A stretch of DNA of 64,000 nucleotides from Aphrocallistes beatrix (Eukaryota > Porifera > Hexactinellida > Sceptrulophora > Aphrocallistidae). The translations under genes were made by a program, and so were the position numbers. This document shows positions 22,557 through 48,959 of this stretch, piece by piece (within the stretch, counting starts at the first letter, position 1; every line of letters starts with the position of its first letter). The stretch lies in the NCBI GenBank assembly GCA_963281255.1, contig OY725496.1:372001-436000 (forward strand). The letters are read 5' to 3'. The notes beneath the pieces are model-generated. The model saw nothing but the letters and a program-made list of their open reading frames with translations. It was not told the origin of the DNA and searched no databases.

Positions 22557-23863
22557 CATAGCATTCTAATACACTAAGGCACTGACACTGCATGTACCAT
22601 GGATGGGTTAATGCCGTTCAATGTAGATTTTGGAAAATTTTGTTTGCATCAATTATATCATTCTAATATGAAACAATAGTAGGATCGGAATATGTTATTG
22701 ACTATGTTAACCCAGTACTACCCAATCTAGACTAAATTTTGAGCATATAATATATGTTTATATTATATAATTCTAAGGTAAATTACAATCAAATGAGCAG
22801 TTCAACAATCACAATAACAACATTAAAACACCAACAAAAGCAGTACACATCTAGTATCTTCAATTGTAATGAGTAATGAGGTCAAGTACAGAATGACATC
22901 TAGTGTCGTTAATGAGTAATGAGGTTACAATACATCGTACATCTAGTATGTTGAATGAGGTGAGCACACATCTACGTCGTATCTTTAGTGAAGATAAATA
23001 CACATGAGGATATAGTACACGTAGACACATCTAGCATAGAATCTTGATTGTACTGAGGTAAATTGTGTAGGAATTAAGTGAGGGTCTTTTGAATATCATC
23101 AGGTCAGCTATAAGAGATAAGTTACGAATTAGATACTAATATTTTTAAGCTTTGTATTGTCAGACTTCGCGACTAAATGCATTAAAATTGTTAACTCTCC
23201 TTAATAAAATACAATTTGAAACAGTAATTACTAATTTATGTAAAATATCCAATCGCCATACTTTACAATCACATAATTCTCTCAATTTTCCAATATGTTC
23301 ATCTTCAATTATTGACGCACTAATAAACTGCGGGATGGGCCAGCAAAAAGTTTTTACATAGAATTTCTGAGGTATCTTCATAAAAGTCTCGTAAATAATA
23401 CTCACACAATCAATAACGGTAAGTGATGGAACATAAGTGAACTTCTATCTAATAAACCAACAAGTATATATTGAGAACCAACATCATTTAAATTTTCCAT
23501 TTGTTTATCAGTTGTTAAGAAATTGTAACAATTGGTGCATTTATTAGTTTTTTTCATGTACGAAAACACGGCATACCCAGCAACCTAAGTAAGAGGCATG
23601 CCTAATTTATTATATAAGATAGTCCTAAACCACCTCTCACACATCTCTTTATCATTTGGGAATGAAAAGGTTGGCGTACGATGCTCCTGGCTCTTGTAAT
23701 TAGAATTACATCCTGGCATCACAGTGCAAAATTTGGCGCCTAGTACAAAGTTTGGCGCCTAAAATCTAGCCAATCAAATTCGAGTATTCAGTACGGCATT
23801 AACATATCTATGGCAACCCAAATTCAAGGCAGTGCCAGTGCCTTAGTGTATTAGAATGCTATG
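22557..23863. mobile_element. Internally deleted P/THAP-type transposon
   Basis: Inverted ends of about 35 bp: CATAGCATTCTAATACACTA and TAGTGTATTAGAATGCTATG. Both flanks carry GTTTACC (22550-22556, 23864-23870), and the related repeat near 9515 shows the uninterrupted site. The minus strand retains a THAP N-terminus and part of a P-type C-terminus. A 7-8-bp TSD and a THAP-bearing transposase fit the P superfamily. Confidence 0.8.
23160..23719 (-). pseudogene. Truncated THAP/P-element transposase
   Basis: From the ATG at 23719 the minus strand reads MPGCNSN, then FSFPNDKEMCERW, a THAP zinc finger start. After about 40 codons the frame jumps to a C-terminal part matching the second copy (GYAVFSYMKKTNKCTNC, ELCDCKVWRLDILH). 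The catalytic middle is gone. The junction contains GGCATGCCTAATTTA (23595-23609), the arm of a palindromic insert that is complete in the copy at 48597. Not functional. Confidence 0.75.
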
Positions 23864-30660: not shown

Positions 30661-30858
30661 CTCTTTATGCGAATTTGTTTATTATCATTCTTATTTTCAC
30701 TCTGTTAGTTGACAGTATTCGTAACTTTCTAGATATTTAAAAGGACCTAATGTTTGTTTTGGCATTATACAATTATAGCGTTTCGTATTATCTCAAATAA
30801 AAGTTGAGTGTTGAACTAAAAATATATTTTTAGGCAGAGTATTAAGCGCATCTCGAAA

Positions 30859-30933
30859 GGGCATGCCTAATTTACGGGACGGGACGGCATCCCGTCCCGT
30901 AAATTAGGTACCTAGAATTTCTGGGATGGTCCC
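30859..30933. mobile_element. Palindromic micro-element, copy A (variant)
   Basis: Starts GGGCATGCCTAATTTACGGG, then the inverted CCCGTCCCGTAAATTAGG, followed by a short extra arm ending GGTCCC. Flanks ATCTCGAAA (30850-30858) and GTCTCGAAA (30934-30942) agree in 8 of 9 bases. Confidence 0.7.
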
Positions 30934-31011
30934 GTCTCGAAATTAGAAGCACCCTCCTTACCTATAATTAGAACGCCCTCCAGGGGGACAGTCAACTCGT
31001 CCCTATTTTGG

Positions 31012-31418
31012 ACATACCTAATTTACAGAAGGCAACGGAGCCATTCCGCGAAATCTGAGCGCCTAATTTACGGAATTTAACGGAACGGTTTTTAAATGCC
31101 TATTTTACGGAATACAGTCGACTCCGCTTAATAGGGTGTCACTGTTTAATCGAGTCAACCGCTTAATCTGGCCACTTTTGGTAGGACCGGATTAGCTCTC
31201 ACACATAGAAGCTAATACAAAATATATTCGGTTAATAGGGTTCTCCGGTTTAATCGGGCCAAAATATCCTCTGACCGATGTGATCCTATTAAGCGGAGTC
31301 GATTGTATTCCGTAAAATAGGCATTTAAAATTCCAAAACCGTTCCGTCAAATTCCGTAAATTAGGCGCTCTGATTTCCCGAATGGTTCCGTCCGTTCTAT
31401 TCCGTAAATTAGGTATGT
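31012..31418. mobile_element. Large palindromic element related to the micro-elements
   Basis: Arms of about 100 bp are inverted: ACATACCTAATTTAC...TTTTACGGAATA against TATTCCGTAAAATAGG...GTAAATTAGGTATGT, sharing CCTAATTTACGG with the small palindromes. The centre is occupied by a TA-flanked MITE (31115-31305). Flanks CCTATTTTGG and CCTATCTTTGG look like a mutated TSD. Confidence 0.65.
31115..31305. mobile_element. pogo/Tigger-like MITE, 191 bp
   Basis: Ends CAGTCGACTCCGCTTAATAGG and the matching inverse ...AAGCGGAGTCGATTG, flanked by TA on both sides. It occupies the loop of the large palindrome at 31012-31418. Confidence 0.85.
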
Positions 31419-32110
31419 AACCTATCTTTGGGGTAGGGGTTAATGGATGGAGAAGTAGAGCATGGGTTTGTCTAGGATTTCCAGTCCGGCACTTTTATGA
31501 AAGTGATTAAGATTTGATGACACCCAAACATATCTTGTAATTCTAGGGGTAGTGGACGATGCTAGACTGGCACCTATAAGTGCCGGCCAAGCACCTAGAT
31601 AAACCCCTGGGGTAGAGGTATAGTTTGGGGTTTCAGTTATAAAAATGGACTATTATAACCATCAATGGAATTAAAAACTGACATAAACTTATACGATTTG
31701 ACCAGCATTCCCCTCCAAATTATATAAATTGAGCGCGCTCCCACTCTTCTATGCGCTCATTCACAAAAACATCGAATCTAACAACCCCCCAGTATTTAAT
31801 CCCCCTGAGATCTGGGGCTGTATCTAACCCTGCAGTAGCCACCCCCTCTGGAGGTTATCCCCTCCCCCTCCTGAAAATATTTTAGATCCCTTTAGCCCAG
31901 GCCTCTCAACTCTCACGATTTGTCACTAGCCATCACACGATTTAGTTAAATTACAGGTTGAGAGTTCCCCCCACTGGAATCCGGGGCTAGATCCAATCTT
32001 GCTCCCCCATTCTATGAAAACTTTCTTCCCCCATAACATTGCAGGTTTATATGCCAAATGGTAGGACTAGGAATTGTGAACGATACCTAAGAATTTAGAA
32101 TAACGTTATA
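31419..32110. other. Intergenic with a probable MITE
   Basis: 31466-31615 has inverted ends GGGTTTGTCTAGG and CCTAGATAAACCC, a likely hAT-like MITE with a weak TSD. 31680-32040 is C-rich non-coding sequence with nothing recognised. Confidence 0.45.
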
Positions 32111-32284
32111 CAGTGGAGATTGGATATGACGACGTACCATCGGGCAAGAGAAAAATGTCGTTATTTGCGATCTGTCACTATATCCGATCTTAGGGTCACA
32201 CACACAATATGCGCTTAGGATTTCGCTCTGGGCAAGGAAAAATGGTCGCTATTTGCGATTTGTCGTTATATCCAATCTTCACTG
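32111..32284. mobile_element. pogo-like MITE, 174 bp
   Basis: Inverted ends CAGTGGAGATTGGATATGACG and CGTTATATCCAATCTTCACTG, flanked by TA (32109-32110, 32285-32286). Confidence 0.85.
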
Positions 32285-32786
32285 TACTAGTATTAATTAT
32301 TAATGAAACACAATCTGTACATATATAATGACAACCTTAGAAATGCATTAACGTGGATATATCATGATAAAAGCCTCATGATAAGTTCTACAATAAACTC
32401 TATCCATAGGTTGAATTATAGACGCACATGACTAACCATAATTTCATATGATTTATATGATGGTTGTAAACCAGTCACAAAGTTTTTCAGCAAATTTAAT
32501 TAATAAATTCTTAAAGGAATGAAAAGTAGAGGAGTATAATTATTTAATAATAAAGCTCAAAATAAATAACAATTATAAAATTAGATCAATTTTTGTATTC
32601 TCCTGCTAATAAATCCTTTGAAATTCTTCTATTTATAGTAAAACTTATATGGCTTCCCCGCCCAAAATGGCTTAAACCGGAAATGACGCGATACATTCCA
32701 GGAGCAACAGTTAATTAGTTGAGCGTTTAAACACTAAAAAATATTCTTAAAACATTAGGTATTTAGGTAACATTGGAGTATTATTC

Positions 32787-33938
32787 TTAAAGAAGATGTT
32801 GGGTGAGATTGGGCGTAAATCTTGTGCGAACAAGTCCATAGCGAAACTTTAGTCGATCCCAGAACATTTTCCCGAAGAATAATGCAGTCGCTATTAAGTA
32901 CTCCGTTCCAATCAAAGTGCATGAGATGAAAACGAGAAACATCGAAAAAATTGTGATAACATCACTGCTAAAGTTTAATGCTTCAACTTCCGGCTTGGTG
33001 ACTAAGTATGCTGGGTAGAATGGGGTGCCATATATATAGTTGAAAAGGCAGGGACCTGAATAGAGGACTAGTGATAGCAGAAAGAAGTATTGTACGATGA
33101 ATTTATCCAAGATAAAACAGGCATTTGCGATTCCAATGGAGCTCATAACAATCGCGAATTGTGAACTGCTAATGTTTGACCTTCTGATAGTACTTTGACT
33201 CCAGCCATTAATCTGATACTCGATTGTCCTCCGTTTTAAGGTGTTGTAGAAATTTCGCGCGCACTTTATCCATATATAGAAATATATTAGTTGAATGATC
33301 GGTTCAAACAGTTTCTGGATTATAATTAATTGTGGAAAACTTGTAACAAGCAAGAAAATTCCAATAATAACTGAAACACATAGAATCTGCTTATTAAAAT
33401 TCTGCCATTTAAGATCGTTAGTGTAATGAATATGAAGATAGTTCATAAAGCAAATTGCAATGGCTATGGAGGATACGAGTCCTACCTTTCCAATGGATAT
33501 CATTAGAGATATCAGCGGATTGATTAATTGAGGAATGTTATTCGTATCAACAAGCACCAGCTCATCAATACAGTTGGGGAAAGTAGAGTTTTCTTGTCTC
33601 TCATTTACATTGAAACCCAATTGACTGCTGAGTTCAACGCTCAATACACAGATGCTCATAGTGGCAAATTCGGATATATTCATTATTAACAGAAATTTAT
33701 ACTTGACAAGTTCCACTTTGAGATGATTTGCCGCATTTAAGAAGTTTCCAAATGGATCAATACTTACTTTCTGCATAGCCTCGAGATACTTTTTATTAAA
33801 ATATATTATTCGCTTCACGAAAAACACATCCCAGAAAAATGACAGCAGCAGAAAGAGTAGGATAGCGGGTAGGAGAGTGATGTTCCGTACATTTACGAAG
33901 GTATTCAGGATACTTGTCGATTCTAACATTTTTTGCAT
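32787..33938 (-). CDS. Orphan multi-TM (about 7TM) protein, member 1
   Basis: 383 residues, one exon, ATG at 33938. About seven or eight hydrophobic segments (about 20-42, 80-100, 143-165, 190-230 as two, 262-305 as two, 328-358). Shared with the genes at 58747 and 61443: a VKRI...F motif after TM1, then HLKVELVKYKFLL entering TM2, PQL...EPIIQLIYF and a FYNTLKRRTIEYQI intracellular loop, and SGPCLFNYIYG before the last TM. There is no DRY or NPxxY motif of class A GPCRs. I do not recognise the family; a lineage-specific receptor or channel-like membrane protein is possible. Minus-strand TATAAAAAG lies 41 bases before the start codon. Confidence 0.75.
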   Translation of the reverse strand: MQKMLESTSILNTFVNVRNITLLPAILLFLLLSFFWDVFFVKRIIYFNKKYLEAMQKVSIDPFGNFLNAANHLKVELVKYKFLLIMNISEFATMSICVLSVELSSQLGFNVNERQENSTFPNCIDELVLVDTNNIPQLINPLISLMISIGKVGLVSSIAIAICFMNYLHIHYTNDLKWQNFNKQILCVSVIIGIFLLVTSFPQLIIIQKLFEPIIQLIYFYIWIKCARNFYNTLKRRTIEYQINGWSQSTIRRSNISSSQFAIVMSSIGIANACFILDKFIVQYFFLLSLVLYSGPCLFNYIYGTPFYPAYLVTKPEVEALNFSSDVITIFSMFLVFISCTLIGTEYLIATALFFGKMFWDRLKFRYGLVRTRFTPNLTQHLL

Positions 33939-33970
33939 TTGAAATATTAGACATATCTGAAAATGGAATG

Positions 33971-33979
33971 CTTTTTATA
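33971..33979 (-). promoter_or_regulatory. TATA box of multi-TM gene 1
   Basis: TATAAAAAG on the minus strand, about 41 bases upstream of the ATG. The other two family members have similar boxes at 58701 and 62651. Confidence 0.5.
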
Positions 33980-34733
33980 GCTGATTATTGACACAACATT
34001 TAATATGAAGTGTGATTTGCGATGTTAAAATTAGATCTGTTATTGTCATGAAAAAATAATTACAAATTGATCTACTTTCTGTGTAGGGAATAGTTTCAAC
34101 TATGTCATATTACTAAGCTGTATTATTACATATCCTTTGTTGAGAAGATCTATTATGTAATTACATAAACTTGTATTATCCCTTATCTCCAAATCCTACA
34201 GATTGATCAGATTACCCTCTGGTAGAATAATATTGTTGAGGTGGTAATACGTAATTGTTTTGCAAGACAATACAATAGATAATGAAATTAAAATCAACCT
34301 CCAAGCAAGCTGCAAAATGACAAATATTTCCGGTCATAGCATATATGCTGAATTAATTATATAATTATGAATATTACACTACAGTAATACAGTCGGAGTA
34401 GGTTTTTTTTGTCCAATTGATTTCATAGTCTAGGTTACAAAAAATAAAAAGACGGACAAATGACTAGACTATTTTATGATTGAGTTTCTACTAATAATAA
34501 AACAATGTTAATAGAGGTCCAGCGACAATAGAAACGATGGACGAAAAACTCATTTTGACTACTTGAAGAGGTGTGAATAAATTTACATACGTGATAATTT
34601 GGTTTTAAATAATTAACATAAACGGTATGTTCTATTGTTAAAGAACCATGAACAGTACCATGATACTTGTGTGTATTTACTCTCATACTGTTGAATAAGA
34701 CTACGGATAGTATTATCGATTTCAAGTGAGTGC
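33980..34733. other. Divergent intergenic region
   Basis: Separates the minus-strand multi-TM gene from the plus-strand NHL gene. 34395-34550 (GGTTTTTT...TTTCATAGTCTAGG, AATAAAACAATG) has a relative at 38278-38600 and around 57960-58090, so it is a low-copy repeat. No gene seen. Confidence 0.45.
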
Positions 34734-35936
34734 ATGGCTACCCCTGTAATACATTTGGAGGAAATCAATCAATTCGATGCTTTATTAACAAAAATTGAGG
34801 AAATATTTTCCTTTTTCCATTCTCTCCTCGATATACAACAAATCTCGCTCGTTGAGAGAGTAGAGAAGATGAAAGAAATTTACCAGCAGCATCAGAAACT
34901 GTCCGAAGCGATAGAACAGCTGGTCAGAAAAGCAACCAACGAAATGCTGAAAGGAGATCTAGTCGCTGGTAATAAAAACGACGTTGTTAGAATTTATGAC
35001 GAAAAGATAAAGCAATTGAAACGAAATAAATCGGATTTAAAACAAGTTTCTGCTCTTAAATTTCTTGACAATGGTAGAGAATTTTCTGAATGCGTTAAGA
35101 GGATCCATTTGAGGGAAGAAGCTGTGGAGTATAAAAGGAGAAGAGAACCTCTTGTCATGAAAGGAAAGAGAGGATTCAATGAAGGAGAAGTTATTGAACC
35201 TCAAGGTATAGCTATTGACGATACGAATAACGAAGTGTTTGTTGTTGATTGCTATAAGGCCTTAGTCTGTGTCTATTCTTCTGAAGGAGATTTCATCCGA
35301 AAATTTGGGAATGAAAAGTTAAATGGATCTTATGGTATCTGTCTCTCTGGGAAGTCTTTATTTGTTTCAAGTCTAACTAGATCAATAATTTACAAATTTA
35401 CTAAAACTGGTGAGTTTTTGAGGAGTACTAGCTTAGAAGGTGAGAATGCGATTGAACTTAAGAATCCGAAAGGTCTGTGTGTAAATAATAATTTTGTGTA
35501 TATTTGTAATAATGGACAAAACAGAATCGAAGTGTTGAAGCTAGATCTGACATTCGTTACGAGTTTCAAAGATGCCAAAAACTTGGAATACCCACAAGAT
35601 ATCAAAATATTTCATAATCAGATACTTGTTCTTACACAGTTTTTTAATACAATCAACATATTTACCGATACATACACTTTTCTCCGTTCTATCTATTTCA
35701 CAGAACTACACAGTCAGATATGTAACTCTTCACAATTCTTCACGATAGACAATAAGGTTAACTTTATAGTTAGTGATTTTGAAGCTGGCTGTTTGAAAAT
35801 ATTTGATCCTTTAGGGAAAAAAGTGGGCACACTTGGAGATGGGTTTTTAACTGTACCACGAGGTGTTGCTATTGACAATCAACTGCGCATTGTCGTTATC
35901 AACCAGTCGAAATACAGTACTTTTCAGAAATACTAG
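34734..35936 (+). CDS. Coiled-coil NHL-repeat protein, member 1
   Basis: 400 residues, one exon. Residues about 10-120 form an alpha-helical coiled coil (EKMKEIYQQHQKLSEAIEQL). About 135-400 is a six-bladed NHL/beta-propeller with blades such as IEPQGIAIDDTNNEVFVVD, LKNPKGLCVNNNFVYICNNG and TVPRGVAIDNQLRIVVIN. The layout equals the C-terminal half of TRIM-NHL proteins (TRIM2/3-like) but there is no RING or B-box and no room for one before the ATG. Inferred role: protein- or RNA-binding scaffold without E3 activity. It is the most diverged of four members here. Confidence 0.8.
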   Translation: MATPVIHLEEINQFDALLTKIEEIFSFFHSLLDIQQISLVERVEKMKEIYQQHQKLSEAIEQLVRKATNEMLKGDLVAGNKNDVVRIYDEKIKQLKRNKSDLKQVSALKFLDNGREFSECVKRIHLREEAVEYKRRREPLVMKGKRGFNEGEVIEPQGIAIDDTNNEVFVVDCYKALVCVYSSEGDFIRKFGNEKLNGSYGICLSGKSLFVSSLTRSIIYKFTKTGEFLRSTSLEGENAIELKNPKGLCVNNNFVYICNNGQNRIEVLKLDLTFVTSFKDAKNLEYPQDIKIFHNQILVLTQFFNTINIFTDTYTFLRSIYFTELHSQICNSSQFFTIDNKVNFIVSDFEAGCLKIFDPLGKKVGTLGDGFLTVPRGVAIDNQLRIVVINQSKYSTFQKY

Positions 35937-36637
35937 GCAATCCCTGTTTATTTACTTATTACATAGTTATATTCTTATTAGTCACTCGGCGAATTTCAAA
36001 ATTTTCTCAACCTGCATTTTACCTCCTATGTATTGATTAGTTATTTCCTACTATTGAGTCGTCGAATTATATCTACGTACGTATTTTCACTTATATCATA
36101 TTATCTATTGATTATTAAATTAAATGCTATGTTGGGTCAGTGGCAGGGTAAGGTTAAGGCCAGATGGGGTCTATGAACCCCTAGTTGGGGATATTGCCAT
36201 ATACTAGGGTATTGGCTTATATCAAGCCGAATCCAAAAACTAGTATTGAATTTATGAGAAATACGATTAGGGAATGGCGCAATGAATAATATTGAAGTTA
36301 TACTACTAAAGTATAGAAATATATATTTTGTAATTTGTGCCATATGGGAATATTTTTCCTCACCACCAAGTTATTCTTATATAACGCATCTATCGAGTTT
36401 AAAATTGGGACATTTCCTGTAATAGGAGCTGCAAATAAAATCTATGGAGAAATACACTGGTCAGGTAGTATTTCACATGTTTATCCCGATAGTAGATTGT
36501 GCAAGTATCATAGTAGGCATGCCAATTTTCACATTAAAATCCATGTGAGTAGTATCAAGTTTATATCTAGGATATATATTCAAACTCAGTCATTGAATAT
36601 TTACATTATCATCATTATTATTATTATTATTTAGTGA
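35937..36637. other. Intergenic between NHL genes 1 and 2
   Basis: AT-rich, no conserved repeat recognised except a short (ATT)n run at 36609-36632 just before the start of the next gene. A similar AAT run precedes the member at 52817-54031. Confidence 0.45.
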
Positions 36638-37849
36638 ATGGCTACGCGTGAAGGTATTGGAGGAGGTTTGGAGGGATTGGATCGGTTCGATGCTTTGACA
36701 CAGGAAATAGAAGAGAAGTTCTCTCACTTCCATTCTCTCCTCGAAACACGAAGAGTGTCTCTTCTTGAGAGAGTGAAGAAGATGAGAGAACTCTACCAGC
36801 AGCATCAGGAACTGTCAGAAGGAATAAAACAGGTGGAAGAGATCAGAAGAGCAACCAACGAAGTGTTAAAAATGAATATAGCTGCAAAGAGGAAGGAAAA
36901 CGTAATTAAAACGTGGGATGATGAGATTGAAGAGTTGACTGGAAAAAAAGCGGATTTAGATCAAGTTTCTACTCTAAAGTTTGTTGACAATAGTGAAGAG
37001 TTTTCTGATTGTGTAAAGAGGATGTATTTGAGAAAAATAGAGGCAGCGGAGTATTGTAAGAGAAGAGAACCTCTTGTCATGAAGGTGAAGATGGGATACG
37101 GTGAAGGAGAAGTTATTGACCCACTAGGTATATCTATTGACGATATGAGTAACGAAGTCTTTGTGGTGGATTACGTTAAGAAACTAGTAGATGTCTATTC
37201 TTCTGAAGGAGATTTTATAAGAAAATTTGGAGAAGAACAGTTAAATGGACCTTGTGGTATCTGTCTATCTGGAGAATTCATATTTGTCTCAAGTCTATCA
37301 AGTTCCGTAATTTACAAGTTTGCTAAAACTGGAGAGTTTGTGAAGAGTACTAGCTTAGAAGGTGAGAATGCTATTCAGCTTAAGAATTCAAGAGGTCTAT
37401 GCGTACATAATGAATTTGTGTATATTTGTAATTTTGGACATAACAGAATCGAAGTGTTAAAACTAGATCTGACATTTGTTAAGAATTTCGGAGAAGACAA
37501 ACTTAAATATCCAGAAGATATCAAACTATTCAAAAATCAGATATTTGTTCTCGTTCAGCTTAATAGTACAATTCACACATTCGATACAGAACACAATTAT
37601 CTCCGTTCTATCCATTTCACAGGACTACAGAGTCAGATATCTCACGCTTTCTTCTTCACAATTGACAATGAGGGTAACTTTATAGTTAGTGACTATGAAG
37701 CTGGTTGTTTGAAGGTATTCAATTCTTCAGGAGAATGTGTAGAGACACTAGGAGAAGGATTTCTATCTCTACCTCAAGGTGTCGCTATGGACAATCAACA
37801 TATTGTCGTCATTTGCATGTCGAATTATAAATGTTTACAAGTTTTCTAA
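36638..37849 (+). CDS. Coiled-coil NHL-repeat protein, member 2
   Basis: 403 residues, one exon, starting MATREGIGGG. The N-terminal coiled coil (residues about 18-125; HSLLETRRVSLLERVKKM) leads into an NHL propeller (about 145-403; GEGEVIDPLGISIDDMSNEVFVVD, LKYPEDIKLF, SLPQGVAMDN). Very close to the two minus-strand members at 45766 and 52817, including the first 60 residues. No RING or B-box. The similarity extends through the coding region, suggesting recent duplication or gene conversion. Confidence 0.85.
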   Translation: MATREGIGGGLEGLDRFDALTQEIEEKFSHFHSLLETRRVSLLERVKKMRELYQQHQELSEGIKQVEEIRRATNEVLKMNIAAKRKENVIKTWDDEIEELTGKKADLDQVSTLKFVDNSEEFSDCVKRMYLRKIEAAEYCKRREPLVMKVKMGYGEGEVIDPLGISIDDMSNEVFVVDYVKKLVDVYSSEGDFIRKFGEEQLNGPCGICLSGEFIFVSSLSSSVIYKFAKTGEFVKSTSLEGENAIQLKNSRGLCVHNEFVYICNFGHNRIEVLKLDLTFVKNFGEDKLKYPEDIKLFKNQIFVLVQLNSTIHTFDTEHNYLRSIHFTGLQSQISHAFFFTIDNEGNFIVSDYEAGCLKVFNSSGECVETLGEGFLSLPQGVAMDNQHIVVICMSNYKCLQVF

Positions 37850-38774
37850 CCTATTTCATATTTTCTAGTTGTTTCTATTTGTTAGTTACTTCTTATTAGT
37901 GATTTGAGTAGGTTCTGTCATTTCATATATATCCCCTATTGTAATGAGTATTGTAAATGTATTGAGAAATTGAGCTGATCTATTTTGAATATATCATGTT
38001 TATATTAGGTGTTAAGAACAACTGTCTATCCTCAAATAGTACTCCGAGAGGGAAGAATTTACAACTTTATACTAAGGCGTAGTAAACATTTCTTACACTT
38101 ATGGAGGAGGCGAATATTCGTGGGCTGGCTATTACTATTCGAGTATATACAGTATAAGTATTCCATAGTTTGAGTTCATAATTATGAATATAAATTTATT
38201 AATAATCCAAGGAATAAAACAGGACAAAATGTAACTTAAATAAACGATGTTACAAATATATAGTAATGCAGTCGAAGTCGGGTTTTTTGTCCGATTTATT
38301 TCATAGCTTAGACCAGAGGCCGGAACCTTTTAAAAAGAAGTGTGCCAGTTTACCTATAATGTCAATATATTAATGACCAGTGGCACGCCTGCCTAGGGAT
38401 ACCGACCCCTGAATATACATAAATGTCTGTCGACCTTTTTTCAACTCCGCGTACCATCAATTTAGGCTCGCGTTCCATAGGTTGCCGACCCCTAACCTAT
38501 AGTCCTAGACGATAAAAAATCTGACTATTTTGAATGGAGTTATTACTACTAATAAAACAATGTTTTCAGAGGCTTTGGAACAAAGAAAAAACGATGGACA
38601 AAATGACCCGGGGTAAAGAAGTATATCCGATACAAAATAACATTCAAGCAAGCTTTAATCTAAGAGAATTATACCTATCAGTTTTAGGAAAGTAATTTGC
38701 CTAACAAATTCAACTAAAGTAGATAATCCCAGCAATTACTACATACACTACGTTATTCCTATCTAATCGCTCTA
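37850..38774. other. Convergent intergenic region with a hAT MITE
   Basis: 3' flank shared by NHL gene 2 and eIF3a. 38315-38494 carries ends CAGAGGCCGGAACC and GGTTGCCGACCCCTA, a known type of hAT MITE terminus, but no clear TSD. 38278-38314 and 38495-38600 together resemble 34395-34550. Confidence 0.55.
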
Positions 38775-40472: not shown

Positions 40473-40495
40473 CTAAATGAGGAAGCATTCACTAT

Positions 40496-41003
40496 ACAGT
40501 CAGGGTCACTTATTATGAACCCACTTAATATGAACATTCGTTGGGCATGCCTAATTTACGGGACGGGATGGCATCCCGTCCCGTAAATTAGGTATGCCAC
40601 ATCCGTTTATTATGAACTAACTTCCTAACTTCCGAATTTCGCACTTTAAAAGAATACTTTGAATATTTTATGAGCTATTGAATTTTGATATATACATATT
40701 TTCACACCTTTTGTTAAAAATCTATTTTAAGCTAAAAGCGAGCTCTCAACGGCTATTATAGGGTATTTTAACATGTAGATTGTAAGTTTACACTTACAAT
40801 GTCCTAAAATGAGTATTTGCCGATGCATTCCGATATTTATATTTCATGTTCCTTCGAGTCACTTCCTGGAGCTGCACTAGCAGTCTGTCGACCGACATTT
40901 TTAGATAGGATTTGTATTGAATCAAGTTCGCTTAATATGAAGTATCTCTATTATGAACAGATTTTTTGACCCCCTGGTAGTTCACAATAAGCGACCCTGA
41001 CTG
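40496..41003. mobile_element. TA-flanked TIR element in eIF3a intron 2, 508 bp
   Basis: Ends CAGTCAGGGTCACTTATTATG and CAATAAGCGACCCTGACTG, flanked by TA (40494-40495, 41004-41005): Tc1/mariner/pogo-like. It contains a palindromic micro-element (40543-40598) and, at about 40640-40910, a segment resembling the insert at 51570-52236. Confidence 0.8.
40543..40598. mobile_element. Palindromic micro-element, copy B
   Basis: 56 bp, GGGCATGCC...GGTATGCC, nearly perfect palindrome with core ACGGGACGGGATGGC. Flanks ACATTCGTT (40534-40542) and ACATCCGTT (40599-40607), 8 of 9 identical. Confidence 0.85.
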
Positions 41004-41222
41004 TATCAGCTTTCAAACAGACCAAAATGTACAATCGTAACCAATCATTAGGCATATTCTCTAGCACGAGAATCCTGAGAAAGCTTAAAAAATGCGAAAT
41101 TACTTCATTAAGAATTAAGAAAATGAGATATGTATACTCATAACCTTAAAGTAGTAGTGTTGTATGATGACAGATTTACTACTCTCTTACCAGTACCATG
41201 GACAGATTTACTACCATAGCGA

Positions 41223-41886
41223 GGGGCACCTACATTTGTCCGAATGAGGTGCATGCATTTGTCCGAATTTTTAAGTTGTCATTTGTCTGAATAAGAATTT
41301 GGAATATTGTCATTTGTCAGAATCGATTCTTGGAATATTGTCACTTGTCCGAATCGATTCTTGGAATATTGTTACTTGAAATTAAAATGCCAATTTTACA
41401 CTCAATCGGACAATATTTCGAACTTGAAAAGCTCCCTTTCACACTTTTCTGATATATATCATTTCCAAAATGTTGACTTTCAATTTCCCATTCATTCTAA
41501 AAAAAACTAAAATTACGATTCGGACAAATGACAATATTCCAAATTACGATTCGAACAAATGACAATATTCCAAGAATCGAAACGGACAAGTGAAAATATA
41601 CAAAGAATCGATTCGGACAAGTGACAATATTCCAAATTACGATTCAGACAAGTGACAATATTCCAAGAATCGATTCGGACAAGTGACAATATTCCAAGAA
41701 TCGATTCGGACAAATGACGGTTAACGCAATTCGGACAAATGCTGCGTCCCCGTCAGAATCTTGTCCATTGTCAGAGTTTCCTTTACTGGTGTTTGTCAGA
41801 ACTAGACAAAGCTGATTCTGACAAACGCCAGTAAAGGAAATTCTAATTAATGACAACTTCGAGATTCTGACAAATGCAGCGTCCCT
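41223..41886. mobile_element. TTTGTCCGAAT-repeat element in eIF3a intron 2, 664 bp
   Basis: Ends GGGGCACCTACATTTGTC and GACAAATGCAGCGTCCCT, perfect 8-bp TSD CATAGCGA (41215-41222, 41887-41894). The interior is many degenerate copies of a unit containing ATTTGTCCGAATCGATTC and TTGGAATATTGTCA, inverted between the two halves. Fortuitous open frames in it are repeat artefacts. Confidence 0.85.
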
Positions 41887-42100
41887 CATAGCGACTATAT
41901 CCTAGTTCTGTAGTATGATATAAAGACCATGAATGCAAAAAATTCATCCATGGTCCATATGGATCTTACAATAATATCATGGCAGTAAAATGTCATGCAC
42001 AGAACTAGGATATAATCGCTTTGGCAATAACTGTCATAGTATGTTTATCCATGGTTCTGGTAATAGAGATAGTAAACTGTCAGTCATCATACATCAGTAC

Positions 42101-42447
42101 TGTTGCGTAGATCCGTGAGATTCTTATCCTACATAACTATCGATGGTTTTGTAATGTAGAATTCTGAGATTATCCATAGAATTGTGAGATTTTGTATCGC
42201 TTACTCAATGGTCTTGTGGTTCAATCGGTTTAATCGTAGCTTGATACGAAGTATAACCATTGCCATCAAATTGTGTCGTGTACCACAATTTGGTGGCGAT
42301 AGTTATCAAGTTACGATGAAACCGGATGAACTTCAAGGCTATTCGAGTAAGAGAAACTAAATCTCGCAGTTCTAAGGATAATATCAGACTCTACATTACA
42401 AAACATCCATGGTTATGTAGGATAAGAATCTCACGATCTATGCAACA
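42101..42447. mobile_element. Inverted-repeat element in eIF3a intron 2
   Basis: About 60-bp arms: TGTTGCGTAGATCCGTGAGA... and the inverse ...TCTCACGATCTATGCAACA. A longer relative with the same arms is at 60599-61229. No clear TSD. Confidence 0.65.
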
Positions 42448-42663
42448 ATTCTATAAAAGAAATTCAAAATATTTACATTTTGAATTACTGCATAATTTGT
42501 TAGTCATATTAGGGGGGTGTAAAATATTTTCAGAGGGCTAGACCGAAGTAGCTAGATGCAACCATGGACGTACGGACGTCGCACTGCGAATAGGGAATTC
42601 CCATAATAGGAGTCGGTATACAAAATAACCAGTGAGAAAACACTGTATAAATATGCAACTCAC

Positions 42664-43170
42664 AGTCGCTTGCTTCTGGAAATATCCAGCTAGCAACTGA
42701 GGTCTTGGATTCGTCCTAGCAGCTCGAGACAAATCAATCAGTTGGTGACATTCCTCCAAAGATCTGAACGCCTCCTGACACGAATCGATCTTAATCGCGG
42801 TTTCTATCAACTCCAAACGGATATCCATCAACCTCTGAATACTGTCAACCTGCGTTAGGTCCACTGAAGTTTCCTGTTCCTGGTGTCTCTGTATTAACAT
42901 CAAATGCGTGCGTAATATCTCGCAGAGTTTACGAAACTCAGCTTTCCGTCTGTACACCTGACAGAACTCCATGGCTCGTTTCGCGATTTCTTGATACAAG
43001 CGTTCGTGGTCTTTATTATTCTTGCACAGATCGAGCATGTTACGGAGACTATCCCAGAGAAACCTCATGAAGGAGATGAAGGAGAGATTCTCTTTCCCGT
43101 CGATAGAAGAAGAGCGAGCTAGTTGTCCCAGAATGTCTTCAGGTGTGTACACCACATCCAGTTCATCGAC
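42664..43170 (-). CDS. EIF3A: eIF3a, exon 2
   Basis: 169 codons between acceptor (TTTTTCCAG, 43171) and donor GTGAGT (42663), both phase 0. Encodes FMRFLWDSLRNMLDLCKNN, QVYRRKAEFRKLCEILRTHL and EAFRSLEECHQLIDLSR, which follow the order and spacing of the eIF3a N-terminal helical repeats. The sequence continues without gap into exon 3. The Met at 43203 lies in the intron and is not a start. Confidence 0.85.
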
Positions 43171-43277
43171 CTGGAAAAAGTAGTGATTGTTAACCCGAGA
43201 CAACTTGGGGTCATTTCTATTTATAGTAATGACTCCACACTTTTAGGGTTTCCCCGCCCAAAATGACTTAACTGGAA

Positions 43278-43501
43278 GGGGACACAGCATTTGTCCGAAT
43301 TTCTAAGTTGTAATTTGTCCGAAACTTAATTTTAGTTTTTTTCAGAATGAATGGGAGATTGAAAGTCAACATTTTGAAAATTATATATATCAGAAAATTG
43401 TGAAAGGGAGGAAAATTGGCATTATAATTTCAAGTGACAATATCCCAAGAATCGATTCGGACAAATGACAACTCAAAAATTCGGACAAGTGCATGTACCT
43501 C
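43278..43501. mobile_element. TTTGTCCGAAT-repeat element in eIF3a intron 1, 224 bp
   Basis: Short relative of 41223-41886. Starts GGGGACACAGCATTTGTCC and ends GGACAAGTGCATGTACCTC, flanked by AACTGGAA (43270-43277) and AACCGGAA (43502-43509). Confidence 0.75.
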
Positions 43502-43923
43502 AACCGGAAATGAGTGAGCAAAATTCCTGGTGTGCCGTGGGTTAAATTAAACTATGGATATAATATTATTCTGGCAATTAAATTGTGATTTTAGCTCACA
43601 ATATTTTGGCAAATAATTTATATTGTGACTCCTATCTGCCAAAATAAAACAATTTAGGTATTACAAAAATTATGGCACATCCAAATCTTAATTCTGGATC
43701 TATAAATATTTTGTCAATTTTACGAAGAGCATGAATGGTAACTTTTATTCAGATGTGGGGGTAAGGGGCAAATTGCACCCCTCTTTGTACGCCATAGATA
43801 AAACTGATTAGGTTAAAATGTCAAAGATTTGGTAGAAAACATCTGCTCTTCTATTATTTGATAGAAATAATATTGTAAACAGACTGAAACAGACCAAATT
43901 TCCGAATAATTCCCAGAACTCAC

Positions 43924-44319
43924 CTGCATGACAGGAACAATATCCACCAGATCAGTCTGCACATACTTCTGAAAAGCTGTCCTCGATTCAGACAGAGAAT
44001 TATGCATTGTAGCTAACCTATCAGCCGCAAACGACAGAAACCGTTCAACTGCACCATGAAACAAGATCAAGTTCTGTGAGCAGATAACTCTATACTGGTA
44101 GAGTCCGTCTTTCGCGTAGGTGGTCTTCTGATGCTCTACACAGAGCTGACAGAATTTGGTGATTACTAATCCCTGCTCGTTCACTTTGTCTCTGTGGCGT
44201 TTGTTTCTGAGTGCATCGAAGAGGACTTCGAGAGCATCATCGTGCTTGTCTACTTCGATGAACTCATCAGCTCGCTTTATAGCTGATTCTGGTTTCCCTT
44301 GAAACGGAGTTTTGGACAT
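43924..44319 (-). CDS. EIF3A: eIF3a, exon 1
   Basis: 132 codons from the ATG at 44319 to a GTGAGT donor at 43923. Begins MSKTPFQGKPESAIKRADEF and has KDGLYQYRVICSQ, matching the eIF3a N-terminus. The codon before the ATG is GTG; the paralogous exon at 51097 starts at the same ATG. A palindromic micro-element lies 46 bp upstream (44365-44416). With exons 2 and 3 it gives an 866-residue protein. Confidence 0.87.
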
Positions 44320-44364
44320 CACAAATGTAAATCTAGAGACTGTATAGTTTGATTAGAAAATATG

Positions 44365-44416
44365 GGGCATGCCTAATTTCCGGGACGGGATCCCGTCCCA
44401 GAAATTAGGCATGCCC
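44365..44416. mobile_element. Palindromic micro-element, copy C, upstream of eIF3a
   Basis: 52 bp, GGGCATGCC...GGCATGCCC, core CGGGACGGGATCCCGTCCC. Perfect 9-bp TSD GAAAATATG (44356-44364, 44417-44425). The paralogous eIF3a upstream region near 51130 lacks it. Confidence 0.9.
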
Positions 44417-44599
44417 GAAAATATGTCGAACTTTAATTAGAAATGTGGAATTTGTCGCAATTACTATTGAAATTCCACATTTCTGATCAAAATATAGTCT
44501 CAAATCTAATTAGTTCTTTATTACAACTTGTGACATCATATCTTTACTATCTGTACATACAAATGCATCTTTTAATAGGCTCCTGGATTTTATAGATAC

Positions 44600-45110
44600 A
44601 AGCGCGCTTCGCTTGCTTGCGCTGCGCGGCTGGCGGACACTTCGTGTCCGCCAGAGGCTCCCTTCGGTCGCCTGGAGGTGACATTGGTAAGTTATAAGGG
44701 AGATATCATCACTAAATATGTCCATCTTAGTTTTAAAATCGATATCACTCGAAAAATCACGAAATTTGTCAATTTTTAAAATTTTTGATGAGTAATGATG
44801 ACGTCATAACAAAGTGATGAGTCATCATTTTTGGGTGATAGTTACATCATATGTGAGGCATGTTAGTATACAGATTCTATTAAAATTTCAGCCTGCTATC
44901 TCCTATAATGATTGAGTTATGCCCGAACAATGCTGTTGCTTAACTTTTAAAAATGTGACAATGACGTCATAATTCCATGATGAGTCGACATTTTGCTCTG
45001 AACTCAGAACTTACTGGAGCCATAGCCAAAATACTCCCACATGCCAAAAATCAGCTTTCTTCGCCCGGCAGTTTCTTCAATCAATTCGTTACAGATATAT
45101 ATATATTCGT
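44600..45110 (+). repeat. GC-module repeat, copy 1
   Basis: Starts with a CpG-rich module of about 90 bp: CAAGCGCGCTTCGCTTGC, then the hairpin GGCGGACAC-TTC-GTGTCCGCC (44632-44652) and a second hairpin around CCCTTCGG. About 420 bp follow (TGACGTCATAAC, GATGAGTCGACATTTTG). Other copies: 51285-52475 (minus), 57218-57720, 63609-64000. Non-coding. Confidence 0.75.
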
Positions 45111-45765
45111 ATATATATAAATAAATAAATATACATTAATCGAGTTTTAATAGTAAGGATTTACAATGGAGCCTCCGAATAACGGACACATTGCGGACAT
45201 GGCTTTTGTCCGTTGTAGGAGAGTGCTTAACTATTACATACGTAGATGGTAAATTCATTCCGTTCCATGAAGTTTGTTCTACATTCGAGGGGTATTTGGA
45301 GGATGGAAGTGGATGTGGCATAGCTTACTTCACTCGATATTTCATCACTCTTTTGAATGGATTGTCCTGATGGAAAGGGTACATTAATTTAGTCTACTGG
45401 AGACAGTAAACTAAATTAATGCAAAAAATGTGCAGTGGAATCTGCTAAAATAAATCCCCCTTATAAACAGTCTCGTCGCCTACTTCCTTATTACAATTAA
45501 CATCTGCATAACGACCACCAGTACATAAATGTCATTTGTGCAAGTTGATTGGATTGCAGTATACAAGTTTCAGTGAATATCTCTTGAATTCAAGTGAACA
45601 TGTTCAATGTATAGAAGTCGGTTAAAGTTTAAAATGTAAAACAAATAAGTCATGTCCAATAATAATTTCACACATTTTTAAAAAAATTCATGTTTTGGGT
45701 TACATCAGAAATTTTTAAAAATATTCAAACGAATATTTAGGAAAAAATAGGAAAGAAGGAATAGG
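45111..45765. other. Intergenic downstream of NHL gene 3
   Basis: 45110-45330 is unique; 45430-45765 matches 52480-52816 downstream of NHL gene 4 (GTGCAGTGGAATCTGCTA, GTCGCCTACTTCC), part of the block duplication. No gene seen. Confidence 0.6.
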
Positions 45766-46980
45766 TTAATAAGTTTGAAGACATTTGTAACTCGACTTGT
45801 TAACAACGACAATATGTTGTTGATTATCCATAGCGACACCTTGAGGTCGAAGTAGAAATCCTTCTCCTAGTGTCTCTACACATTCTCCTGAAGGATTGAA
45901 CACTTTCATACAACCAGCATTTCTGTCACTAACTATAAAGTTACCCTTATTGTCAATTGTGAAGAAGAAAGTGTTAGATATCTGACTCTGTAGTCCTGTG
46001 AAATGAATAGAACGGAGATAATTGTGTTCTGTATTGAATGTGTGAATTGTACTATTAAGCTGAACGAGAACAAATATCTGATTTTTGAATACTTTGATAT
46101 CTTGTGGATATGTTAGTTTGTCTTTTCCGAAATTCTTAACAAATGTCAGATCTAGTTTCAACACTTCGATTCTGTTATGTCCAAAATTACAAATATACAC
46201 AAATTCATTAAGTACGCACAGACCTCTTGGATTCTTAAGCTGAATAAAATTCTCACCTTCTAAGCTAGTACTCTTCACAAACTCTCCAGTTTTAGCAAAC
46301 TTGGAAATTACTGAACTTGATAAACTTGAGAAAAATAGGAATTCTCCAGATAGACAGATACTACAAGGTCCATTCAACTGTTCTTTTCCAAAATTTCTTA
46401 TAAAATCTCCTTCAGAAGAATAGAGACAAACTAAGCCCTTATAGTAATCAACAACAAATACTTCGTTACTCGTATCGTCAATAGACATACCTTGTGGATC
46501 AAAAACTTCTCCTTCACCGTATCCCATCTTCACCTTCATGACAAGAGGTTCTCTTCTCTTACAATATTCCACTGCTTCTATTTCTCTCAAATGCATTCTC
46601 TTTACGAAATCAGAAAACTCTTCACTATTTAGGACAAACTTTAGCTTGGAAACTTGATCTAAATCCGCTTTTTTCTCAGTCAACTCTTTAATGTCGTCAT
46701 CACACGTTTTAATTAAGTTTTGTTTGCTTCTTGCAGCCAAATTCATTTTCAACATTTCATTAGTTGCTCTTCTGATTCCTTCAAGCTGTTTTATCGCCTC
46801 GGACAGTTCCTGATGCTGCTGGTAGAGTTCTCTCATCTTCTCCACTCTCTCAAGAAGAGATACTCTTCGTGTTTCGAGGAGAGAATGGAAGTGAGAGAAC
46901 TTCTCTTCTATTTCCTGTGTCAAAGCATCGAACCGATCCAATCCCTCCAAACCTCCTCCAATACCTTCACGCGTAGCCAT
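45766..46980 (-). CDS. Coiled-coil NHL-repeat protein, member 3
   Basis: 404 residues, one exon, ATG at 46980. Coiled coil about 18-125 (LYQQHQELSEAIKQLEGI), NHL propeller about 145-404 (FDPQGMSIDDTSNEVFVVD, LKNPRGLCVLNEFVYICNFG, LRPQGVAMDNQQHIVVVN). No RING or B-box. It lies about 1.4 kb upstream of eIF3a exon 1 on the same strand, the same arrangement as member 4 with the duplicated eIF3a exon, so the two genes were copied together. Likely a scaffold built on the propeller; specific partner unknown. Confidence 0.85.
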   Translation of the reverse strand: MATREGIGGGLEGLDRFDALTQEIEEKFSHFHSLLETRRVSLLERVEKMRELYQQHQELSEAIKQLEGIRRATNEMLKMNLAARSKQNLIKTCDDDIKELTEKKADLDQVSKLKFVLNSEEFSDFVKRMHLREIEAVEYCKRREPLVMKVKMGYGEGEVFDPQGMSIDDTSNEVFVVDYYKGLVCLYSSEGDFIRNFGKEQLNGPCSICLSGEFLFFSSLSSSVISKFAKTGEFVKSTSLEGENFIQLKNPRGLCVLNEFVYICNFGHNRIEVLKLDLTFVKNFGKDKLTYPQDIKVFKNQIFVLVQLNSTIHTFNTEHNYLRSIHFTGLQSQISNTFFFTIDNKGNFIVSDRNAGCMKVFNPSGECVETLGEGFLLRPQGVAMDNQQHIVVVNKSSYKCLQTY

Positions 46981-47538
46981 TCACTCAATAGAACTCAATA
47001 ATAATTATAAAGTACTACTAAGTAAGAATAATTAAATACTTGATACTAATAGTATGTTTAATTTAAATATGGCTATCATACTACTAGTGAGGATAATATT
47101 ACACTGAGTATTCTCGATCAATGAACTTGGGATAATAGTATAGTAGATTTACTATAATCTGTGGAGTCAGGTCTATCTATGCAATTTGTAAAGGAATGTC
47201 GATCACATCAGGTCATAGTGCATCTCATTAAAGTTGCAAAATAAGTGCGTGTAAAGCTGTGAGAATTATTACATATGCTTAATATTTCAGCAGAGGTATC
47301 ATACAGCCTTTCAAGAGATACGCTCCTAGTCTCAAACCCATAAATTTTCATACTCCTAAATTGATAAATAACATTATGATTTAGGGGAAATTAGGTAATA
47401 TCTACATTCTCATGATCCTAAACACTGTCGGGCTTAAAATTATATGCCTAAAGGAGCGTCAAACGCTGCTATCCAGTTTTTTGAAAAATGACAAGAATTA
47501 CTAATTTGTTATAAATCTGTTCGAAGCTTAGGTTCAGT
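46981..47538. promoter_or_regulatory. NHL gene 3 upstream region
   Basis: 46981-47280 is homologous to 54032-54320 upstream of NHL gene 4 (shared CACTCAATAGAACTCAATAA, TGTGGAGTCAG, AGTGCATCTCAT), so the promoter regions were duplicated. 47290-47538 is unique AT-rich sequence. Confidence 0.5.
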
Positions 47539-48117
47539 CATAGCATTCTAATACACTAAGGCACTGGCACTGCATGTACCATGGATGGGTTAATGCCGTT
47601 CAATGTAGATTTTGGAAAATTGTGTTTAGCATCAATTATATCATTCTGATATGAAACAATAGTAAGATCCGAATATGTTATTGACTATGTTAACCCAGTA
47701 TTACCCAATCTAATCGCCTAGACTAAATTTTGAGAATATAATAGATGTTTATTGACAATTCTAAGGTAAATTACAAACAAATCAGGCAGTTCAACAATCA
47801 CAATAACAACATTAAAACACCAACAAAAGCAGTACACATCTAGTATCTTCAATTGTAATGAGTAATGAGGTCAAGTACAGAATGACATCTAGTGTCGTTA
47901 ATGAGTAATGAGATTACAATACATCGTACATCTAGTATGTTGAATGAGGTGAGTACACATCTAGGTCGTATATTTAGTGAAGATAAGTACACATGAGGAT
48001 ATAGTACACGTAGGCACATCTAGCATAGAATCTTGATTGTACTGAGGTAAATTGTGTAGGAATTAAGTGAGGGTCTTTTGAATATCATCAGGTCAGCTAT
48101 AAGAGATAAGTTACGAA

Positions 48118-48785
48118 TTAGATACTAATATTTTTAAGCTTTGTATTATCAGACTTCGCGACTAATGAATTAAAATTGTTAACTCTCCTTGATAGAATAC
48201 AATTTGAAACAGTCATTACTAATTCATGTAAAATATTCAATCGCCATACTTTACAATCACATAATTCTCTCAATTTTCCAATATGTTCCTCTTCAATTAT
48301 TGACATACTTATTCGCACTAACAAACTGCGGGATGGGCCAGCATAAAAGTTTTTACATAGAATTTCTGAGGTGTGTATCTTCATAAAAATCTCGTAAATA
48401 ATACTCACACAGTCAATAACGGTAAGTGATGGAACATAAGTGAACTTCTATCTAATAAATCAACAAGTATATATTGAGAACCAACATCATTTAAATTTTC
48501 CATTTGTTTATCAGTTGTTAAGAACTTGTAACAATTGGTGCATTTATTAGTTTTTTTCATGTACGAAAACACGGCATACCCAGCAGCATAAGTAAGGGGC
48601 ATGCCTAATTTACGGGACGGGATGCCGTCCCGTCCCGTAAATTAGGCATGCCCATAAGTAAGGCATTCAAGTTGTGAAGGACTTATCAGAATATCGGGAA
48701 TAAACTGTAATGTTTCCAAGAAAAATTGTAGTTGATCAGAATTTGAGTCTTGATCACTAACATTTTCGACAAACGTAACGTATAA
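48118..48785 (-). pseudogene. P-type transposase C-terminal fragment
   Basis: Minus strand reads FVENVSDQD, LQFIPDILISPSQLECL, then (after skipping the palindrome and one TSD) TYAAGYAVFSYMKKTNKCTNC, YILVDLLDRSS, a one-base frameshift near 48430, and SIIYEIFMKIHT ... ELCDCKVWRLNILHELV. The AGYAVF / KCTNC / LLDR order is typical of THAP9/P-element C-termini. Broken by the insertion and the frameshift. Confidence 0.7.
48597..48653. mobile_element. Palindromic micro-element, copy D
   Basis: 57 bp, GGGCATGCC...GGCATGCCC, perfect arms TAATTTACGGGACGG. Perfect 9-bp TSD ATAAGTAAG (48588-48596, 48654-48662). Inserted in the P-type transposase coding sequence. Confidence 0.92.
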
Positions 48786-48959
48786 GAATATCATAGCGTA
48801 ATGAAATGATGTAATCAAGCCAGTAAATTTGTAATTTATTTTAGATCAGTGCTGTCTATTTCGGAATTTCAATGTGTGTGGTATTTAGAATTCTTACAAT
48901 TCAATTCAATCTAGGGTATATACCGTATTTCCCTGAATAAGCGCCGGGGCTCGAATTAC

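What the first reader, a model, noticed from the sequence alone, without database searches (positions are those of the whole stretch)
30859..48653. Family of 52-75-bp palindromic elements with 8-9-bp target duplications
Four copies (30859-30933, 40543-40598, 44365-44416, 48597-48653) are almost pure hairpins: GGGCATGCC, CTAATTTACGGGACGGG and their inverse, with practically no loop. Each is flanked by a duplicated site: ATCTCGAAA/GTCTCGAAA, ACATTCGTT/ACATCCGTT, GAAAATATG twice, ATAAGTAAG twice. They are therefore mobile, yet shorter than typical MITEs and with essentially no sequence except the inverted repeat. Nine-base duplications point to a Mutator-type or similar transposase. A larger relative at 31012-31418 shares CCTAATTTACGG and may link them to a parent element.
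Basis: partly seen in the sequence, partly recalled or inferred. Interest (0 to 1): 0.75.

Follow-up and report, generated by a model that had tools for sequence, protein, structure and literature searches.

The report
Tiny palindromic foldback transposon family
These 50-to-57-base hairpins are the smallest members of a family of jumping DNA elements built from a short repeated unit facing its own mirror image, probably moved by a Mutator-type enzyme supplied by another element of the same genome.

Summary
Observation confirmed, with corrections. The copies are near-loopless hairpins. Their 24-base tip occurs 185 times in this 100.5-Mb eukaryotic genome, its reversed control 0 times. Of 64 de-duplicated copies (50 to 1757 bp), 30 carry 9-bp and 22 carry 8-bp target duplications, 12 neither; mispaired flanks pass in 7 of 4032. 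Six paralogous empty sites show the insertion of the 48597 copy.

They are the minimal members (one tip plus one unit per arm) of a foldback family whose arms are tandem 30/31/45-bp units. 46 of 51 copies of 261 bp or less share one central junction, so the short form itself spread. Of 17 MULE transposase loci read from the same genome, 7 have tandem arrays on both sides; two of those have exact 8- or 9-bp duplications. Muta1, Tm1 and Tetris in print are the same kind. No coding parent with this tip was found: 1 of 121 MULE hits lies within 5 kb of 159 listed tips (185 exist), and there the copy sits inside a MULE fragment. The 31010-31420 relative is a sister foldback with a TA-flanked insert at its palindrome centre, not a parent. 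New member of a known kind; unusually small.

The parts
30850..30858 (+). left target duplication of copy 1 (ATCTCGAAA)
   Evidence: read directly
30859..30933 (+). copy 1: left tip + centre + truncated right arm (75 bp)
   Evidence: right tip missing, ends in GGGATGGTCCC
30934..30942 (+). right target duplication of copy 1 (GTCTCGAAA)
31010..31420 (+). sister foldback element (GGACATACC tip, CCTAATTTACGG units); possible 8-bp duplication CCTATTTT/CCTATCTT with 1 mismatch if the last two bases of the right tip are taken as changed
   Evidence: 114 exact sister tips genome-wide
31115..31305 (+). 191-bp insert with CAG...TTG ends and TA on both sides, at the palindrome centre of the sister element
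   Evidence: 52 of the 60-bp arms pair around it in a gapped alignment; uninterrupted centre GGAATATTCC in L118
40535..40542 (+). left target duplication of copy 2 (CATTCGTT)
40543..40599 (+). copy 2, 57-bp hairpin
40600..40607 (+). right target duplication of copy 2 (CATCCGTT)
44356..44364 (+). left target duplication of copy 3 (GAAAATATG)
44365..44416 (+). copy 3, 52-bp hairpin
44417..44425 (+). right target duplication of copy 3 (GAAAATATG)
47539..48956 (+). longer genomic repeat that carries copy 4 and was itself copied
48588..48596 (+). left target duplication of copy 4 (ATAAGTAAG)
48597..48653 (+). copy 4, 57-bp hairpin
48654..48662 (+). right target duplication of copy 4 (ATAAGTAAG)
22557..23609 (+). 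another copy of the longer repeat, ending inside the first 16 bases of the same insertion (half site)

Best explanation
A non-autonomous foldback-type DNA transposon family. A full copy has the tip GGGCATGCC at both ends; the last 8 bases of that tip, GGCATGCC, are themselves a palindrome. The tip is followed inward by one to many tandem units of about 30, 31 or 45 bp (CCTAATTTACGGGACGGGAC...), and the two arrays face each other. A Mutator-like (MULE) transposase made elsewhere in the genome most likely binds the ends, cuts the element out and joins it to a target with an 8- or 9-base stagger, which gives the 8- or 9-bp duplications. Shown here: family structure, duplications, empty sites for one insertion, a shared centre in the short copies, and MULEs in the same genome with the same kind of arms and both duplication lengths. 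Inferred: that a MULE moves this family, that the 50-57-bp form is itself transposed, and that unit number changes by unequal exchange or slippage.
For: Tip 24-mer: 185 exact copies, reversed control 0; unit 21-mer: 364, control 0. Duplications: 30 of 64 at 9 bp, 22 of 64 at 8 bp, against 7 of 4032 mispaired flanks. Empty sites: of 16 places scored with the joined flanks, 6 match over 169-171 of 171 bases, 9 are filled, 1 is a half; each empty site has the 9-mer once, unchanged in 3 and changed by a few bases in 3. Common centre in 46 of 51 copies of 261 bp or less, at separate sites with their own duplications. MULE hits: 121 in the genome, from 150 of 168 candidates scored. Of 17 MULE loci read (L086-L089, L097-L109), 7 have tandem arrays on both sides of the MULE domain (L086, L087, L100, L101, L102, L103, L109). 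L086 has a GGG tip and an exact 8-bp duplication; L100 has a GGG tip and an exact 9-bp one. L086 and L087 encode MULE plus RING; L087 also has a FLYWCH match below cut-off. Muta1 in print makes 8- or 9-bp duplications (21 and 39 of 60 yeast insertions, passage) and has a 10-bp imperfect palindromic tip plus tandem subterminal repeats.
Against: No coding element with this tip was found. Of 121 MULE hits one lies within 5 kb of the 159 listed tips (185 exist), and there the copy interrupts a MULE fragment (weak FLYWCH match, 18.5 bits against a cut-off of 23.6). The exact 17-mer unit is in none of the 17 MULE or 6 Merlin loci read; only 2-mismatch-or-better matches to the 12-mer CCTAATTTACGG occur in 4 of the 10 loci L080-L089. 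Ten of the 17 MULE loci do not show arrays on both sides within the stretch fetched. 12 of 64 copies show no duplication by my criterion. A 6157-bp sister element with an exact 8-bp duplication (C2:4751293-4757449) contains none of the 121 listed MULE hits, so the transposase could be a different one or a diverged MULE, or that copy may hold a nested insert; I could not read it. Merlin (20 hits), P (20) and hAT (150 scored of 672 candidates) transposases also exist in the genome.
Confidence: 0.75

Rival explanations
1. The family is moved by a non-MULE transposase that also gives 8-9-bp duplications (Merlin, or hAT or P with 8 bp).
For: All three are present: Merlin 20 hits, hAT 150 scored of 672 candidates, P 20. 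The sister element C2:4751293-4757449 holds no listed MULE hit.
Against: 1 of 20 Merlin and 0 of 20 P hits lie within 5 kb of a listed tip; the Merlin one is 3.1 kb from the tip and about 1.9 kb beyond the other end of that element. In 6 Merlin loci I found no exact duplication around inverted ends; L083, whose coding part is itself an inverted pair, gave only 1-mismatch chance-like ones. The mix of 8 and 9 bp is what Muta1 makes. Tandem-repeat arms were seen on MULEs here.
Confidence: 0.2
2. The 50-57-bp hairpins are leftovers: longer members transposed, then lost units in place by unequal exchange or slippage across the palindrome.
For: Unit-phase-preserving loss from FRR or FFR forms would give exactly the 57-bp form with the same centre. 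Copy 1 looks like an in-place 27-bp loss. In 9 filled copies of one insertion, 2 changed length by 5 or 9 bp.
Against: 57 bp is the commonest size: 6 of 21 tip-bearing loci on contig C1, counted by hand; one of the 6 is repeat-borne. The 9 copies of one insertion show no whole-unit change, though a one-unit array could not show unit loss.
Confidence: 0.35
3. Not transposons: palindromes made by replication template switching.
For: They are almost pure hairpins.
Against: Shared sequence at many places, 8-9-bp duplications in 52 of 64, empty sites with a single 9-mer.
Confidence: 0.02

Closest known systems
Muta1 of Aedes aegypti, MULE classed as type-2 foldback (PMC5225508; passages, one of them in the abstract, and section 7 seen)
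   Same: 8- or 9-bp duplications; short palindromic end motif followed by tandem subterminal repeats; over 300 non-autonomous derivatives with variable repeat number
   Different: Autonomous copy known and active in yeast; 12-bp repeats; the only natural non-autonomous size I saw stated is 1623 bp, whereas here copies go down to 50 bp without internal sequence and no coding copy was found
Tm1 of root-knot nematodes, Mutator/Foldback (PMC3169594; abstract, sections 8, 9 and part 1 of 11 seen)
   Same: Composite terminal repeats with variable numbers of a short unit, differing between the two ends; 9-bp duplications; MITE-like class most numerous; M. hapla lacks a coding copy
   Different: 14-bp units, 1 to 9 per end, smallest copy 0.17 kb; here about 30-bp units, 1 to 56 per arm, smallest 50 bp
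Tetris of Drosophila virilis (PMC4079207; abstract, section 10 and part 1 of section 16 seen)
   Same: Foldback with tandem repeats in the arms, 8-10-bp duplications, no coding copy found, arms can grow into satellite-like arrays
   Different: 220-bp units, arms up to 1735 bp; no minimal hairpin form in the sections I saw
Phantom-type MULEs (Tm1 discussion; table passage of PMC6446971)
   Same: FLYWCH plus MULE proteins are present here (L088, L089); 8-10-bp duplications
   Different: Membership of this family not shown; no coding copy

Membership tests
Foldback (FB-type) transposons | Long inverted ends built from tandem subrepeats, little or no middle | tested here: met
   Arms of 1-56 units, facing arrays; 52 of 64 copies have a centre under 100 bp after L042 is reassigned by hand. 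In 15 of the 64 (the 50-62-bp copies) the array is reduced to one unit per arm, so these alone would not show it
Foldback (FB-type) transposons | Mobile: target duplications and empty sites | tested here: met
   52 of 64 with 8-9 bp; 6 empty sites for one insertion
Mutator-like (MULE) superfamily | Duplication of 8-11 bp (range as in a passage of PMC6446971) | tested here: met
   30 of 64 at 9 bp, 22 of 64 at 8 bp
Mutator-like (MULE) superfamily | A family member encodes a MULE transposase between the same tips | tested here: not met
   No MULE hit of 121 lies in an intact pair among 159 of 185 listed tips; 26 tips were not listed and diverged tips are not covered. The family is therefore described as MULE-like, not filed as a proven MULE
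MITE | Short, non-coding, inverted ends, duplication, many copies | tested here: met
   no ORF of 50 codons in L042; ORF lists were made for few of the larger copies
Merlin / IS1016 | Transposase of this family between the same tips | tested here: not met
   20 hits; nearest 3.1 kb from a listed tip and outside the element; same limits on listed tips
P / Galileo foldbacks | P-type transposase between the same tips | tested here: not met
   20 hits, none within 65 kb of a listed tip; same limits on listed tips
hAT | 8-bp duplication only, hAT transposase between the same tips | tested here: inconclusive
   9-bp duplications in 30 of 64 argue against; only 150 of 672 hAT candidates scored; compared with tips by eye only; one degenerate hit (C7:314108) lies between two truncated copies without a shared duplication

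The most novel reading that the evidence does not exclude
The 50-57-bp hairpin (tip, one unit, mirror image, no cargo, loop of 3-5 bases) is itself a working cut-and-paste substrate: an element reduced to two transposase-binding ends. The family can grow long arms on both sides only after another element has landed in the palindrome centre and supplied a spacer, because long spacer-free palindromes are unstable.
Probability: 0.3. Interest if true: 0.6.

Novelty: new member of a known kind. Interest (0 to 1): 0.42.

Why it matters
It gives a size series of one transposon family in one genome, from a bare 50-bp hairpin to a 1757-bp copy with 56 units in one arm, with empty sites for one insertion. 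That makes two questions testable: how short a substrate a MULE-type transposase can move, and how long a spacer-free palindrome a eukaryotic genome tolerates. It also shows a possible route from transposon ends to a minisatellite (L065).

Tried and rejected
Autonomous parent: searched MULE, Merlin, hAT and P families genome-wide, compared coordinates of MULE, Merlin and P hits with 159 of 185 tips and of hAT by eye, read 17 MULE and 6 Merlin loci; no parent. The facing tips C7:310686 and C7:320515 (9.8 kb) looked like a long element but have no common duplication, and each is a truncated separate copy.

Sister-tip pairs of 4194 bp (C7) and 5735 bp (C12) have no common duplication; the 6157-bp pair on C2 has an exact 8-bp one but could not be read. 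The sister 44-bp palindrome L118 has no visible duplication; the 55-bp L125 has a 9-bp one with 2 mismatches.

Idea that copy 1 used an alternative internal end: a simple 27-bp loss through CCCGTC repeats explains it as well, so not claimed. The automatic split put L042 among the spacer-free copies; reading it shows a long non-repeat interior, so I count it by hand as spacer-bearing. One-sided arm growth (14 of 16 copies with exactly two extra units, counted by hand) fits palindrome instability but also the fact that a one-unit array cannot change by unequal exchange, so it stays a suggestion. An ungapped comparison of arms around the central inserts gave only 17-25 of 30 and 39 of 100 for the window; with gaps it is 51-54 of 60 in 6 of 7, 38 in L041, and 52 in the window.

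Public prokaryotic and viral contigs: 0 exact matches to a 19-mer and a 17-mer. Literature: four tip and unit strings occur in 0 papers of the held library; a search for smallest-MITE phrases listed nothing that looked relevant. Searches were seen only as listings. The organism was not identified. The novel-case probability was lowered from a first 0.4 to 0.3 on re-check, because it joins two claims that I rate 0.6 and 0.4.
Full report
What is there. Copies at 30859-30933, 40543-40599, 44365-44416 and 48597-48653 were read directly. All fold as strong hairpins, and none of 200 shuffles folds as well for any of them. The window lies in a genome of 100,537,919 bases in 28 contigs, with genes of eukaryotic type such as eIF3a PCI and LRR-EGF domains. 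The organism was not identified.

Family. The 24-mer GGGCATGCCTAATTTACGGGACGG occurs 87 + 98 = 185 times, and its reversed control 0 times. The inner unit GCCTAATTTACGGGACGGGAC occurs 169 + 195 = 364 times, control 0. I paired facing tips (up to 2 changes in 15 bases) in the stretches fetched and de-duplicated them: 70 elements, 64 after dropping 6 repeat-borne copies of the 48597 insertion. The set is not a random sample: L009-L038 are the first 30 listed places (contig C1 and the start of C2), most of the rest were chosen by me, and L110-L117 were chosen because both tips were close together. Copy 1 of the window is not among the 64 because its right tip is missing. Sizes run from 50 to 1757 bp. 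On C1, where all 28 listed tips were read, I count by hand 21 loci, 6 of them 57 bp and one of those repeat-borne.

Duplications. With at most one mismatch, 30 of 64 have 9 bp, 22 of 64 have 8 bp and 12 of 64 have neither. Left flanks paired with right flanks of other copies pass in 7 of 4032. For the 48597 copy the flanks joined without the element were searched: 6 places match over 169-171 of 171 bases (86-95% identity), 9 are filled (window included) and 1 is a half site. Alignment shows one 9-mer in each empty site, unchanged in 3 and changed by a few bases in 3, and two in the filled ones. The filled copies are 95-100% identical to the window flanks, so one insertion was later copied with its host repeat (47539-48956). 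Among these 9 copies of one event, 7 keep 57 bp, one has +5 bp at the centre (L096) and one has +9 bp at a tip (L001).

Architecture. Reading larger copies and counting units shows arms of tandem 30/31/45-bp units, forward then reverse. 46 of 51 copies of 261 bp or less contain the same 14-base centre (at most 2 changes). In these 51 the shorter arm has 1 unit in 46 and 2 in 5, the longer arm 1 to 6. A common centre at many sites with their own duplications means the short lineage spread as such; independent collapse at each site would not give one junction. L065 has 1 unit against 56 (1757 bp), a minisatellite held between transposon tips.

Spacer. In 52 spacer-free copies the shorter arm has 1 unit (47) or 2 units (5), never 3, although the longer arm reaches 56. 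In 12 copies with a long interior (L042 moved to this group by hand) the shorter arm has 1 in L020 (a damaged copy), 3 in L042 and 4 to 11 in the other ten; the automatic split, with L042 still on the other side, gave a Mann-Whitney p of 9e-10. In 7 of these copies I located an insert of 496-853 bp with CAGTCGAG... ends and TA on both sides (TG on one side in L041). The arms around it pair in 51-54 of 60 positions in 6 of the 7 and 38 of 60 in L041, so it sits at the centre of the older palindrome. These copies share descent, so they are few independent events. Unequal-exchange kinetics or assembly loss of long palindromes could also produce the pattern.

The relative at 31010-31420 has sister tips (GGACATACC; 114 exact copies), the same CCTAATTTACGG unit, and a 191-bp insert with TA on both sides (31115-31305). 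The arms meet there as GGAA-TA-TTCC; 52 of 60 positions pair around it, and the uninterrupted form GGAATATTCC is seen in the 44-bp sister palindrome L118. Its first 40 bases differ from those of the L044 insert after the first seven (by eye), so two different inserts seem to have hit palindrome centres. The ends with TA suggest pogo- or Tc1-like MITEs; that label is recalled, not tested.

Which enzyme. Duplications of 8 or 9 bp, GGG tips and tandem-unit arms are what I find on some MULEs of the same genome. L086: 2873 bp, exact 8-bp duplication GTAGTATT, 20-23-bp units, one ORF with MULE and RING domains. L100: 1714 bp, exact 9-bp duplication ACGTGATGA, 15-bp units. L087, L101, L102, L103 and L109 have tandem arrays on both sides of the MULE domain. 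So 7 of 17 MULE loci read show this; the other 10 do not within the stretch fetched. Published Muta1 matches closely: 8 bp in 21 and 9 bp in 39 of 60 yeast insertions (passage), a 10-bp imperfect palindromic tip and tandem subterminal repeats. Against: no coding copy with this tip was found among 159 of 185 listed tips, and a long sister element with a clean duplication has no listed MULE hit.

Verdict. New member of a known kind, a MULE-like foldback family. Its notable points are its minimal size (Tm1's smallest reported copy is 0.17 kb) and its natural series of arm lengths. Steps shown: family, insertion, duplication, shared centre. Steps inferred: transposase identity (about 0.75), direct transposition of the 57-bp form (about 0.6), spacer requirement (about 0.4).

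Noticed in passing
   Followed up: partly
L065 3011-4767: One copy has 1 unit facing 56 tandem 31-bp units: a minisatellite between transposon tips.
   Followed up: partly
L040 167-1000: The flanks of this 834-bp copy are inverted copies of each other over about 27 bp, with no direct duplication; unexplained.
   Followed up: no
L001 and L023, right tips: An extra 9-10 bp resembling the tip (xxxATGCCC) next to a normal tip; in L001 it arose after insertion.
   Followed up: partly
L043 1650-1680: A family copy ends with its 8-bp duplication directly against the tip of a sister-family element, as if both used the same site.
   Followed up: no
window 31115-31305 and cores of L040, L041, L044, L045, L072, L074, L077: Inserts with TA at their borders sit at the centre of palindromic elements; possible preference for palindrome centres.
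   Followed up: partly
window 40494-40542 and 40896-41009: 40494-40542, the left flank of copy 2, is 94% identical to repeats in the MULE loci L098 and L100; 40896-41009 is 95% identical to L098. Copy 2 is probably nested in another repeat family.
   Followed up: partly
window 41254-41878 and 60623-61222: Other inverted, tandemly built repeat elements in the window.
   Followed up: no
window 42538-43203 and 50675-51265, minus strand: Two pieces of an eIF3a PCI-domain gene; copies 3 and 4 lie between them, with a 97% duplicated 478-bp stretch (43860-44335 and 50636-51113).
   Followed up: no
window 34734-37849, 45766-46980, 52817-54031: Four single-ORF NHL-repeat genes, duplicated in both orientations.
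   Followed up: no
window 11455-13233: 592-codon ORF with integrase core (rve) and SCAND3-like zinc finger.
   Followed up: no
L079 2159-2379: A 221-bp family copy interrupts a weak FLYWCH match next to a MULE domain hit with a stop, that is, it lies in a MULE fragment.
   Followed up: partly
L087 644-967: Two inverted 2-mismatch matches to the 12-mer CCTAATTTACGG, 300 bp apart, beside a MULE; could be an old sister copy or chance.
   Followed up: no
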